DNA of 64,000 bases, from contig NZ_CP041070.1 of NCBI RefSeq assembly GCF_006459125.1, positions 124,001-188,000 of the forward strand, given 5' to 3'. A program made the position numbers and the translations under genes. How positions within the stretch are numbered: the stretch's first letter is position 1; each line of letters opens with the position of its first letter. The notes beneath the pieces are model-generated. The model saw nothing but the letters and a program-made list of their open reading frames with translations. It searched no databases and was not told where the DNA came from. This stretch comes from Halarcobacter anaerophilus. GTDB taxonomy: Bacteria > Campylobacterota > Campylobacteria > Campylobacterales > Arcobacteraceae. Positions 55,674 through 59,349 of this stretch are shown here, in pieces.

Positions 55674-56825
55674 TTAAAACTTTAGAATAAAGCTTGTTCC
55701 TTTTTTTAAAGTAGAGTCAACAACTATTTTTATAGAATATTTTTCGCAAATATTTTTAACGATATTTAATCCGATACCGAAACCTCCGCTATAATCCGTT
55801 GCTCTATAGTATCTGCTGAATATATCATTTATTTTATCTTTTTCAATACCGATACCGCTGTCGCTTATGGTTAAAGTATGATTTTTAAGTTCTATTTCTA
55901 TTTTTCCTTTTTGTTTGTTGTATTTTATTGCATTTGATAGAATATTGTTAAAAAGTCTAATAAAATCATTTTCATCAATAGTAAAAAAAGTATCTTCTAA
56001 AAAGGTATCTATAGATATTTTTTTCTTTTGCGCCAAGGCTTCAAAATATTTGATTTGGGTATTTATTAACTCTTTTAGATTGTGTTCTTTAGGTTCACTG
56101 AGAACTCTTTTATCTTCTAGAAAAATATAGGTTAAATCCTTATATACTTCCGATATCCTTTGGGCAGCTAGTTTTATTCTTTTTATCTGTTTTGAGCTTA
56201 AATGCTCTTCTTCTGCCGACATTAAAATAGCACTTATGGGAGTATTTAATTCATGGGTTGTATCTTTTATAAAATTGTTTAATCTCTTTCTTTCATCTTT
56301 TATAGGTTTTAAAAATAGTTTGGCAAGAAAAAATCCAAGGACTGAGACCATAAAGTAGATGATTAGAAATAAGATGATTATCTCATTTTTAAGTTTGGCA
56401 ACTCTATTAAAAAAAAGATTCTCTTCTATAGCAATATAATAAATACCTAAGTGCCCATATGTAGAATCATTAACTAAAATAAAGTTTTTTTCTTTTTCTA
56501 TTATTTTCTTAGAAAAATCTATAGTGTCATTTAGATTACCGAAAATTTTTCTTCTATTCTCATCATAAAAAGAGATTTTATAAATATCGGTTTTTAAAAA
56601 CTGGGAAAGTTCCAGCCCATGACCGTTCATATGGGAGTGGGTAATTTGTGAAGAGATATTTGAAGCTATATTTTGCATTTTTGTTTTTGCCAAATCAAAA
56701 TAAAGTTTTTTTTCATTTTGATAATAAAGCAGGGCAATTAGAAGCATTAGAATAAAAGAACCGCCTAAATAAAGGGTAAAAAATCTTATAAAAGTTCTTT
56801 TTTCACTATAAGTTAAATCTTTGAT
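55674..56825 (-). CDS. CusS-like sensor histidine kinase, apparent ATC start
   Basis: This membrane kinase of about 383 residues has two hydrophobic segments around a short periplasmic loop, a histidine box DTTHELNTPISAI and an ATPase domain ending SGGFGIGLNIVKNI. The loop contains THSHMNGHG, whose His and Met residues could bind copper. The only ATG near the N-terminus (56747) cuts into the first membrane segment. Upstream the frame is open and reads KDLTYSEKRTFIRFF. An ATC at 56825 follows SD AAAGGA by five bases, so I place the start there. It is divergent from the regulator at 56903, its probable partner. Confidence 0.75.
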   Translation of the reverse strand: MKDLTYSEKRTFIRFFTLYLGGSFILMLLIALLYYQNEKKLYFDLAKTKMQNIASNISSQITHSHMNGHGLELSQFLKTDIYKISFYDENRRKIFGNLNDTIDFSKKIIEKEKNFILVNDSTYGHLGIYYIAIEENLFFNRVAKLKNEIIILFLIIYFMVSVLGFFLAKLFLKPIKDERKRLNNFIKDTTHELNTPISAILMSAEEEHLSSKQIKRIKLAAQRISEVYKDLTYIFLEDKRVLSEPKEHNLKELINTQIKYFEALAQKKKISIDTFLEDTFFTIDENDFIRLFNNILSNAIKYNKQKGKIEIELKNHTLTISDSGIGIEKDKINDIFSRYYRATDYSGGFGIGLNIVKNICEKYSIKIVVDSTLKKGTSFILKF

Positions 56826-56902
56826 ATAAATCCTTTTTTATTTGGATTATATCATAAAATTTTTCCATAGATTTTACACAAAGTTATACTATACTTAAGA
56901 TT

Positions 56903-57562
56903 ATGAAAATATTACTTTTAGAAGACGACACTTTATTAAATGAAATTATTGTAGAGTTTTTAGAAGAGCTTGATTATGAAGTTATAACGACTTTTGACGG
57001 TCAAGAGGCTTTGGAAACAATTTACGAAGATAAGTTCGATTTGCTTATTTTAGATGTAAATGTACCTAGTCTAAACGGTTTTGAGCTTTTAAAAGAACTT
57101 AAGTCAAACTCTATAAATATTCCTTGTATTTATATTACCTCTTTGCATACTTCAAAAGATATGGAAGACGGATTTAAAGCAGGGGCTGATGATTATATTA
57201 AAAAACCTTTTCATTTAAGTGAGTTAAAACTAAGAATAAACAATATAAAAAGATTAAGACAGATAGAAGCAAACGGTATAATAAAACTTGCCGATGCAAT
57301 TTTTTACGATAATGATGAAAAAATTTTAAAAGTTAATGATAAAGAGAGTCATCTTTCAAAAACAGAGGCAAAAGTCTTTGAGTATTTTATAAAAAACAGA
57401 AATAAATCTATATCTATAGAAGAGATCTCTTTAAATAACTGGCTTTATGATGAAGTTCCTACTGCAACAACTATTAGAACATATATAAAAAATTTACGAA
57501 AAATTTTGGGCAAAGACAGGATTATTACTTCTAAAGGAATAGGTTACAGGCTTAATCTTTAA
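56903..57562 (+). CDS. OmpR-type response regulator (metal locus, first)
   Basis: This is a 219-residue response regulator. The receiver domain opens MKILLLEDDTLLNEI and has its phospho-acceptor Asp near residue 51 (LLILDVNVPSLNG) and Lys in YIKKPF. The winged-helix domain has TIRTYIKNLRKIL and SKGIGYRL. Its closest relative is the regulator at 58690-59349. There is no clear SD, and TATACT lies close to the ATG, so the leader may be very short. It overlaps the 3' end of the second kinase by 11 bases. Confidence 0.9.
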   Translation: MKILLLEDDTLLNEIIVEFLEELDYEVITTFDGQEALETIYEDKFDLLILDVNVPSLNGFELLKELKSNSINIPCIYITSLHTSKDMEDGFKAGADDYIKKPFHLSELKLRINNIKRLRQIEANGIIKLADAIFYDNDEKILKVNDKESHLSKTEAKVFEYFIKNRNKSISIEEISLNNWLYDEVPTATTIRTYIKNLRKILGKDRIITSKGIGYRLNL

Positions 57563-58709
57563 ATTTTAGTTTAAAAGTTGTTCCTTTTGTCTCTTGGGAT
57601 TCTACTTCTATTTCTATATTATAAGTTTTGCAAATATGATATACGATATTAAGACCTATACCGAATCCTCCTTGCTCTTTTGTTCCTCTATAGTATCGAT
57701 TAAAGATATCTTTTAATCTATCTTTTTTTATTCCTATTCCTCCATCTTCAATTATAAGTGTGGAGTCTTTTAGCGTTATATTGATAAAACCTCCGATTTT
57801 ATTATATTTTATAGCATTTGATATTAGATTGTTAAAGAGTCTTGAAAAATTTTCTTTATCTATTTTAAAAGTAGTAGGTTCCAGCTTTGAGTTGATTGTT
57901 AATCTCTTTTTTTGTGAAAAAGATTGAAAATATTCAAGTTGTTGTTCTATTATCTTATCAAGCTGCAGTTCTTCGATATGGGGTTTATTATTGCTGTCTT
58001 GTAAAAAAAGATAGACTAAATCTTTGTAAATTTCCGAAATTCTTTTTGCGCTTAAATTAATTCTTTGAAGATTTTTTTGAGTTAAAGGTGCATCTTTTCC
58101 CGTACTCATTAAAATAGCCGTTATGGGAGTATTTAACTCATGGGTAGTATCTTTTATAAAGTTATTGAGTTTTTTTCTTTCATTTATAATAGGGCTTATA
58201 AAAAGACTTGCCAGATAGTAACCTATTACTGCAATAGTAGAATAAATCAAAAAGAAATAGAAAATGAGTTTTTCCGTTAGTTTTGTGATTATATCATGGT
58301 AGATATTCTCTTTTATTACAATATGATATACTCCTAAATGCCCCCTTGGCGTACTGTCTACTAGAACAAAACTGTCATCTATCTTTTGCAGTTTTTTTGA
58401 CAAATCAATTCTATTTTTTATATTTCCTATTAATTTTCTATGCTCTTTATCAAATAAAGCATAATCATATTTTATAAAATTTGCCATTTTTGCAGTATTT
58501 ATTGAAAGCCCTGCCATATGAGCGTAAATTATTGCAGAAGAGACTTTTGAAGCCACATTTTGCATATTTGAGGTTATTAACTCATATTGTGATCTTGATT
58601 CCATTTTATAAAAAAGAAGAAATATTATGGTTAATAAAATAAAAGAAGAACCTAAATAGAGTCCTAAAAATTTGCTAAAGGTGATTCTCTCACTTCTTGT
58701 TAAATCGAT
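57552..58709 (-). CDS. CusS-like sensor histidine kinase (paralogue), apparent ATC start
   Basis: This is a paralogue of the kinase at 55674, with box DTTHELNTPITAI and ATPase motif GGFGIGLNIVYHI. Its periplasmic loop has IYAHMAGLSINTAKM, again with His and Met. The first ATG in frame (58604) lies after the first membrane segment. Upstream the frame reads DLTRSERITFSKFLGLYLG without ATG, GTG or TTG. An ATC at 58709 follows SD AAGGAG by six bases and lies inside the last codons of the regulator gene (20-base overlap), which would give coupled translation of about 385 residues. Confidence 0.75.
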   Translation of the reverse strand: MDLTRSERITFSKFLGLYLGSSFILLTIIFLLFYKMESRSQYELITSNMQNVASKVSSAIIYAHMAGLSINTAKMANFIKYDYALFDKEHRKLIGNIKNRIDLSKKLQKIDDSFVLVDSTPRGHLGVYHIVIKENIYHDIITKLTEKLIFYFFLIYSTIAVIGYYLASLFISPIINERKKLNNFIKDTTHELNTPITAILMSTGKDAPLTQKNLQRINLSAKRISEIYKDLVYLFLQDSNNKPHIEELQLDKIIEQQLEYFQSFSQKKRLTINSKLEPTTFKIDKENFSRLFNNLISNAIKYNKIGGFINITLKDSTLIIEDGGIGIKKDRLKDIFNRYYRGTKEQGGFGIGLNIVYHICKTYNIEIEVESQETKGTTFKLKFKD

Positions 58710-59349
58710 AACCGACTCCTTTTATAGTTTCAATAAACTCTTCTCCTAAAACTTTTCTGATATTTTTTATATAAGTTCTAATAGTAGATGAGGTAGGCGA
58801 AGTCTCATAACTCCAGATATTTGAGCTTAGTTCATCTTGGGAAATACATCTGTTTGCATTGTTTATAAGATATTTGAGAATCTGAGCCTCTTTTAAAGGA
58901 AGTTTTGTTTTTATTGAATTATTGTTTATATAATTGAGTTTTGAATTAAATTTTATATCTTTTGAAATCTCTATCTCTTCATCTTCTAAATGAAGAAGTC
59001 TTTTTATATTGTTTATTCTAAGTTCTAACTCTTTTAATTCAAAAGGTTTTTTCAAATAATCATCTGCTCCGCTTTTAAAGCCCTCTTCAACATCTTCAAC
59101 CGAGTTTAAAGAGGTAATAAAAATAGCAGGAGTGGTTATCTCATTATCCCTTAGATTTTTTAAAAATTCAAAACCCGTAAGTGTAGGTACGTTTACGTCT
59201 AAAATCAGCAAATCAAAAGGGTTTTCATATATAATCTCACTTGCCTGCATTCCGTCAAATACGCAGGTGACCTCATATCCTAGTTCTTGAAGGAACTCTT
59301 CAATTATCTCATTTAGTATTAAATCATCTTCTAAAAGCAATATTTTCAT
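58690..59349 (-). CDS. OmpR-type response regulator (metal locus, second)
   Basis: This 219-residue receiver plus winged-helix regulator has receiver motifs LLLEDDLILNEI, LLILDVNVPTLTG and YLKKPFEL, and an output domain with TIRTYIKNIRKVLG and KGVGYRF. The start is the ATG at 59349, which matches the start of its paralogue; a longer frame to 59391 adds a non-conserved hydrophobic stretch. It lies before its kinase and is divergent from the YceI-type gene, a possible target along with the efflux operon. Confidence 0.9.
   Translation of the reverse strand: MKILLLEDDLILNEIIEEFLQELGYEVTCVFDGMQASEIIYENPFDLLILDVNVPTLTGFEFLKNLRDNEITTPAIFITSLNSVEDVEEGFKSGADDYLKKPFELKELELRINNIKRLLHLEDEEIEISKDIKFNSKLNYINNNSIKTKLPLKEAQILKYLINNANRCISQDELSSNIWSYETSPTSSTIRTYIKNIRKVLGEEFIETIKGVGYRFNKK

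What the first reader, a model, noticed from the sequence alone, without database searches (positions are those of the whole stretch)
56740..56837. First metal-locus kinase also fits an ATC start
Seen directly: upstream of the ATG at 56747 the frame reads KDLTYSEKRTFIRFF without a usual start and stops at 56838-56840. ATC at 56825 lies five bases after AAAGGA. It aligns with the ATC of the paralogous kinase at 58709 and precedes the same DLT-SE block. Two paralogues keeping the same odd start argue against random sequence error and for selected low-level initiation. Together with the AEC gene, this window has three such cases.
Basis: partly seen in the sequence, partly recalled or inferred. 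Interest (0 to 1): 0.68.

Follow-up and report, generated by a model that had tools for sequence, protein, structure and literature searches.

The report
Kinase genes with inherited weak starts
A family of bacterial sensor-kinase genes appears to begin translation at AUA, AUC or AUU instead of AUG, because the start signal arose inside the end of the partner gene, and the kinases keep this weak start even after moving away from that partner, which may hold kinase amounts low.

Summary
HK1 (56825-55674, -) and HK2 (58709-57552, -) have no ATG/GTG/TTG that could start a full-length protein; each has a good Shine-Dalgarno (SD) site 5-6 nt before ATC. Of 98 close family members whose N-terminus I could read in the same bacterial family, 98 have ATA, ATC or ATT at the aligned codon, none ATG. 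Codons of the RR's C-terminal motif K/R-G-V-G-Y-R-F (e.g. AAA GGA GTT GGT TAT AGA TTT), read one base on, give SD + AT(A/C); the RR's Arg/Lys codon puts A or C, not G, in third place. Where the RR has Val or Gly instead, the kinase has ATG at this very codon (5 of 80 named loci, at least 3 origins). HK1's clade lost the overlap (its RR is divergent), yet 20 of 20 keep AT(A/C/T). AUH initiation at this site is near certain by comparison. That AUG is selected against, to hold kinase below RR, is plausible but not proven: neutral drift of the third base is not excluded. No expression data were available.

The parts
55674..56825 (-). HK1, sensor histidine kinase (HisKA + HATPase_c), standalone; start ATC 56825-56823
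   Evidence: Pfam HATPase_c 79.2 bits, HisKA 27.9 bits
56823..56825 (-). ATC start codon of HK1
   Evidence: aligned codon is ATA/ATC/ATT in 98 of 98 rows, own two included
56831..56836 (-). Shine-Dalgarno AAAGGA of HK1, 5 nt before ATC
56846..56851 (-). TATAAT, -10-like box beginning 26 nt before ATC; implies a leader of roughly 15 nt (inferred, not mapped)
   Evidence: TATAAT or TATACT beginning within 45 nt in 16 of 20 standalone genes
56903..57562 (+). RR1, OmpR-type response regulator, divergent from HK1; no kinase overlaps its 3' end
57552..58709 (-). HK2, paralogous sensor kinase; start ATC 58709-58707 inside the RR2 gene
58716..58722 (-). AAAGGAG: Shine-Dalgarno of HK2 and at the same time codons of RR2's K-G-V motif
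58690..59349 (-). RR2, OmpR-type response regulator ending KGVGYRFNKK; its last codons hold the SD and start of HK2 (overlap 20 nt)
   Evidence: ATG 59349; the domain scan was given the protein from its second residue
49911..55613 (-). genes downstream of HK1: YtkA-like (55613-55233), OEP/TolC-like (55233-54034), HlyD/CusB-like (54037-53036), CusA/CzcA RND pump (53027-49911)
   Evidence: that they form one operon with HK1 is inferred

Best explanation
HK1 and HK2 start at AUC, read by initiator tRNA as methionine, behind a well-placed SD. The start arose inside the upstream RR gene: the codons of its C-terminal K/R-G-V-G-Y-R/K-F motif, read in the +1 frame, supply SD and AU(A/C), and the RR's Arg/Lys codon fixes the third base to A or C. 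The kinase could gain AUG there only if the RR changed that residue to one with a G-codon, which some lineages have. HK1's clade later separated from its RR, took its SD-AUH element along and kept it. Shown by comparison: place of the start, its conservation, its seat in the RR motif in the overlapped genes, ATG at the same site in the Val/Gly lineages. Inferred: direction of the change from overlapped to standalone; that AUH gives roughly a tenth of AUG-level initiation, as measured for other genes in S. aureus; and that this keeps the kinase well below the RR (HK2) or below a co-transcribed efflux pump (HK1). The 0.9 below is for the start site and its overlap origin, not for the adaptive use.
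For: 98 of 98 AUH, 0 AUG. SD in 98 of 98, spacing 6 nt in 76 of 98. pN/pS 0.28 between AUH and the first ATG. An in-frame stop within 3 codons upstream in 24 of 98. The first ATG lies at or after the computed start of TM1 in 98 of 98. Among 80 named loci (the best 80 of 569): ATG at exactly this codon in 5, with RR Val (4) or Gly (1), at least 3 origins, and there it is the only standard start near with an SD. RR codons are constrained where they carry the SD or start: Gly GGA/GGG 76 of 76 (elsewhere in the same RR frames GGT/GGC 236 of 476), Tyr TAT 76 of 76 (elsewhere TAC 84 of 669); in RR1, which has no overlapping kinase in 13 of 13, GGT/GGC stands in 5 of 13 and TAC in 2 of 13. Standalone genes are one clade (20 rows, SH-aLRT 98, quick tree) among overlapped ones, with at least 7 third-base changes, none to G. 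Leader fossils: SKGVYHRF in the old RR frame in 4 of 20, a fifth with a stop before GVYHRF. An own-genome gene (L292) has ATA where the 12 homologues read (of 23 other matches) have ATG, TTG or GTG.
Against: No expression, ribosome-profiling or N-terminal data. G is only 3.4% at four-fold third positions of these genes, so the absence of ATG in 20 standalone copies of one origin is compatible with drift. In the Val/Gly loci ATG follows by arithmetic from TAT plus a G-codon, and an RR without a kinase in the own genome also reads GYV (L097), so those loci show that ATG can stand at the site, not that the RR changed for the kinase's sake. 55 of 98 have TTG two codons upstream and 3 have TTG four codons upstream, but these lie against or across the SD. 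TAT at the RR tyrosine is only mildly unusual in AT-rich DNA (a nearby Tyr position: TAC 4 of 74). Rows are related by descent, so none of these counts are independent draws. More distant relatives use other starts: 41 of 80 named loci have a standard start codon two codons on or, with an SD, eight codons before.
Confidence: 0.9

Rival explanations
1. The AUH start is a neutral relic: fixed by the RR overlap, and after separation simply never replaced because kinase level matters little and G is rare at such positions. (It agrees with the best explanation on the start site and its origin and differs on adaptive use.)
For: One origin of the standalone clade; third-base G 77 of 2250 at four-fold sites and 327 of 2370 at A/G sites of the standalone set, so in 7 changes 0.2-1 G would be expected (by hand).
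Against: AUA/AUU and AUG differed about tenfold in S. aureus reporters (PMC13009471), so equivalence is unlikely; 236 of 273 SD-supported standard starts picked in a sample of this genome are ATG; SD and spacing are well kept while the codon stays weak.
Confidence: 0.4
2. Translation starts at a downstream ATG (56747 for HK1), as an ATG/GTG/TTG-only annotation would give.
For: It is the first standard start codon in frame.
Against: It would remove most of TM1 (computed residues 15-33; the ATG is codon 27 counted from the ATC); the stretch before it is under purifying selection; the first ATG's position differs between relatives (16 to 50 codons after AUH); ATG stands at the AUH site in the Val/Gly lineages.
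Confidence: 0.02
3. The kinase is made by +1 frameshifting from the RR (a fusion), or from the TTG two codons upstream.
For: The kinase frame is +1 to the RR over the 14-20 nt overlap; TTG at -2 in 55 of 98.
Against: 20 standalone genes show no RR1/RR2-like match upstream on their own strand in the stretch held; 40 of 98 have no standard start within 4 codons upstream; 17 of 76 overlapped genes have a stop just before the codon ahead of AUH; the TTG touches the SD (spacing 0).
Confidence: 0.05

Closest known systems
Conserved AUA/AUU starts of S. aureus ccpN, cvfC1 and infC (PMC13009471, passages read)
   Same: AUH codon with a good SD; two newly found and conserved (ccpN AUA, cvfC1 AUU); reporters gave about 10% of AUG in one medium, up to 30% for ccpN in another
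   Different: Not described, in the passages read, as lying inside an upstream gene's conserved motif; here all three AUH codons interchange and the origin in an overlap is visible
E. coli infC and pcnB (AUU starts; titles seen in the reference lists of PMC2268962 and PMC13009471, otherwise recalled)
   Same: Inefficient AUU start limiting synthesis; IF3 discrimination
   Different: Not sensor kinases, no overlap origin known to me; infC of this genome appears to start at TTG
Translationally coupled overlapping gene pairs (review PMC12548453, passages read)
   Same: HK2 starts inside its upstream partner gene on the same strand
   Different: The commonest pair overlaps by 4 nt (NTGA) with a standard start; here the overlap is 14-20 nt, the start lies in a protein-motif codon and is AUH

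Membership tests
Sensor histidine kinase (HisKA/HATPase_c) | HisKA and HATPase_c over Pfam gathering score | tested here: met
   HK1 27.9 and 79.2 bits, HK2 30.9 and 74.4 (cut-offs 26.9 and 26.4)
Heavy-metal sensor kinase CusS/CopS/SilS (TIGR01386) | Score over curated cut-off 292.55 | tested here: not met
   94.7 (HK1), 104.2 (HK2); a metal role rests on the neighbouring CusA/CzcA pump (TIGR00914, 1000.8 over 701.45)
Genes with functional AUH start codons (infC/pcnB/ccpN type) | SD at proper distance before AUH and no usable standard start | tested here: met
Genes with functional AUH start codons (infC/pcnB/ccpN type) | AUH conserved across species | tested here: met
   98 of 98 rows in 73 genomes of the family
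Genes with functional AUH start codons (infC/pcnB/ccpN type) | Measured initiation at AUH, below AUG and sensitive to IF3 | not testable with these tools
   no expression data
Translationally coupled overlapping pair (HK2 with RR2) | Same-strand overlap of the two genes | tested here: met
   20-nt overlap
Translationally coupled overlapping pair (HK1) | Same-strand overlap of the two genes | tested here: not met
   RR1 is divergent; no RR1/RR2-like match upstream on HK1's strand
Translationally coupled overlapping pair (HK2 with RR2) | Downstream translation depends on upstream translation | not testable with these tools
   needs reporters

The most novel reading that the evidence does not exclude
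The C-terminal DNA-binding motif of OmpR-type response regulators doubles as a portable initiation element (SD + AUH) for the partner kinase; AUH is kept because it sets a low kinase:regulator ratio, adjustable through IF3, and the element stays selected after the genes part, so start codons of a whole signalling family are set by a protein motif of another gene.
Probability: 0.4. Interest if true: 0.78.

Novelty: new variant of a known kind. Interest (0 to 1): 0.62.

Why it matters
My searches turned up only a handful of conserved AUH starts; this supplies a family-wide set with a visible cause: one gene's protein motif dictating its neighbour's start codon, lineages where the motif differs and ATG stands at the site, and copies released from the constraint. 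It makes directly testable whether weak start codons are used to fix kinase:regulator ratios. It also means that gene calling limited to ATG/GTG/TTG would cut off much or all of the first transmembrane segment of many of these kinases; the A. butzleri genome paper says its ORFs were predicted with those three codons (PMC2147049, passage read).

Tried and rejected
Frameshift fusion, TTG at -2 and downstream ATG: rejected or unlikely, see rivals. Third-base drift as proof of selection: tried and not conclusive. Naming HK1 a CusS-type metal sensor: not met. infC of the own genome as an AUH gene: appears to start at TTG. One search was a failed first table (minus-strand loci read on the wrong strand), redone; the row L032 was misplaced, corrected. 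Alignment A1 was used only as a query. Rows dropped: of 99 family matches at E 1e-90 or better, one (L253) begins at query residue 78 and its start was not read; weaker matches (paralogues HK3, HK4 and others) were left out of the 98 by that cut-off, and HK3/HK4 may start at TTG. Two of 22 rows counted as standalone (L251, L252) lie behind an RR whose similarity ends about 39-55 nt before the start, so 20 are called standalone. In one search an RR1 3' end was recognised for 13 of the 20. In one search one sampled stretch lies inside the window, so its genes are counted twice, and the standard starts counted there were picked by SD strength. Literature searches for this arrangement or its parts; none of the listings named it, in a library lacking most subscription journals and bioRxiv. 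The C. jejuni translatome paper (PMC11955535) has no occurrence of 'AUA', 'AUU', 'non-canonical' or 'histidine kinase' at a word start in its main text. No phylum outside Campylobacterota was tested.

Full report
What was checked. HK1 lies on the minus strand. TAA (56840-56838) closes its frame; AAAGGA, five bases and ATC (56825) follow, then K-D-L-T-Y-S-E; the first ATG is 56747.

Relatives. The window lies in a 3.02-Mb one-contig genome. Contigs of the same length and coordinates in named records (L106, L108, L110: Arcobacter sp., Poseidonibacter ostreae, Aliarcobacter vitoriensis) suggest that the family is Arcobacteraceae. A search of 104 genomes of the family gave 99 matches at E 1e-90 or better in 73 genomes. 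One begins at query residue 78 and was dropped. In the other 98 the codon before the [D/K/N..]LT..E block is ATA, ATC or ATT; none has ATG, GTG or TTG (table; counts: 22 without an overlapping RR: ATA 14, ATT 5, ATC 3; 76 with one: ATA 55, ATC 21). All 98 have at least 4 nt of AAGGAGG upstream, 76 with exactly 6 nt spacing. In 24 of 98 a stop codon lies in frame within three codons upstream. TTG occurs two codons upstream in 55 and four codons upstream in 3, against or across the SD; 40 have no standard start within four codons.

It is translated from there. Over 22 codons beginning at the L of D-L-T, all before the first ATG, the 20 standalone genes give pN/pS 0.28; the same stretch in the two other frames gives 1.07 and 1.74. 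The first ATG lies at or beyond the computed start of the first transmembrane segment in 98 of 98; for the first of ATG, GTG or TTG the margin is looser: it lies more than 5 residues past that start in 76 of 98.

Why AUH. In 76 loci the codon sits inside the RR gene, whose tail reads (K/R)GVGYRFN or similar; the overlap is 14, 17 or 20 nt (3, 29, 44 loci). RR codons GGT TAT AGA, read one base on, are GTT ATA GA.; the third base of the start comes from the next RR codon (Arg 62, Lys 6, Ser 5, Gln 2, Ile 1 of 76), so it is A or C. The SD is made by the K/R-G-V codons. RR synonymous sites agree: the Gly codon within the SD is GGA 61 or GGG 15 of 76, never GGT/GGC, while GGT/GGC make 236 of 476 other Gly codons in these RR frames; the Tyr codon is TAT 76 of 76 against TAC 84 of 669 elsewhere (a nearby Tyr position has TAC in only 4 of 74, so the Tyr evidence is the weaker). 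RR1, the regulator beside HK1, has no overlapping kinase in 13 of 13 recognised; there GGT/GGC stands in 5 of 13 and TAC in 2 of 13. These rows are related by descent, so such counts are not independent draws.

A natural comparison. A scan of named genomes kept the best 80 of 569 loci; their titles name Campylobacterota groups except L183, called only 'bacterium'. By fixed rules 23 have only AUH at the site; 5 have ATG at this very codon, with RR Val (4) or Gly (1); 13 have ATG two codons on, 15 TTG or GTG two codons on, 13 a standard start with SD eight codons before, 6 no RR overlap recognised, 5 other. ATG at the site needs at least 3 origins on the tree (one of the five, L177, is a long branch). 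That the codon is ATG follows from TAT plus a G-codon; what it adds is that in these five this ATG is the only standard start near that has an SD of 4 nt or more, so the start site of the family is here and the RR residue decides whether AUG is possible. Val after GY also occurs in an own-genome RR without a kinase (L097), so the RR need not have changed for the kinase's sake.

After separation. The 20 standalone genes form one clade (SH-aLRT 98, quick tree, root not inferred) among overlapped ones; at least 7 third-base changes occurred among these 20 and at least 20 over all 98 rows, none to G. 16 of 20 have TATAAT or TATACT beginning within 45 nt upstream, 14 have the divergent RR1 within 150 nt, and a YtkA-like gene follows in 16 (one stretch, L201, ends too soon to tell, and the contig of L032 ends near). 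Leaders of 4 of 20 still read SKGVYHRF in the old RR frame, a fifth has a stop before GVYHRF; RF and what follows are forced by the kinase codons themselves, the KGV part is not.

Selection or relic. At four-fold third positions of the standalone set G is 77 of 2250, at A/G positions 327 of 2370. Hence no G in about 7 changes is not surprising by mutation alone. What speaks for selection is indirect: 236 of 273 SD-supported standard starts picked in a 444-kb sample of the genome are ATG; AUA and AUU gave about 10% of AUG output in S. aureus reporters, up to 30% in one case (PMC13009471, passages read); and CpxA:CpxR stands at 1:10 in E. coli (PMC4985592, passages read), a ratio that such a start could set. 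That the ratio here is set so is inference.

Not alone. In the same sample two further SD-AUH-only genes appear besides HK1, HK2 and AEC: an oxidoreductase-like gene with ATA (12) or ATT (1) in 13 of 13 genus genomes searched, and an exported-looking protein whose ATA aligns with ATG (5), TTG (4) or GTG (3) in the 12 homologues read. So AUH starts may be about 1% of genes here; five candidates are few.

Verdict. A real, inherited, family-wide AUH start with an overlap origin: new variant of a known kind. Adaptive use is likely enough to test, not shown.

Noticed in passing
   Followed up: partly
L291:4416-5567 (+): FAD-dependent oxidoreductase-like gene (named by eye): ATA/ATT start in 13 of 13 genus genomes searched, 5 with a stop codon between SD and start; in the six relatives read outside the genus ATG or TTG stands near the place in five.
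   Followed up: partly
L292:15667-16329 (-): Exported-looking protein with ATA start in the own genome where the 12 homologues read, one of them an own-genome paralogue, have ATG, TTG or GTG: perhaps a recent switch to AUA.
   Followed up: partly
L003 and L004 (paralogous kinases HK3, HK4): Probably start at TTG supplied by other RR codons (LGKDRIV and GYKFE regions), so the RR tail offers several start positions (relatives).
   Followed up: partly
L251, L252 (5' region): RR similarity ends about 39-55 nt before the kinase, but a relic reading KGVSYNF* with SD and ATA is still in place.
   Followed up: no
L053, L074, L075, L076, L069: Other overlaps of an RR tail with a downstream frame that have AT(A/C) near the SD and TTG 2-3 codons on; which codon is used is open.
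   Followed up: no
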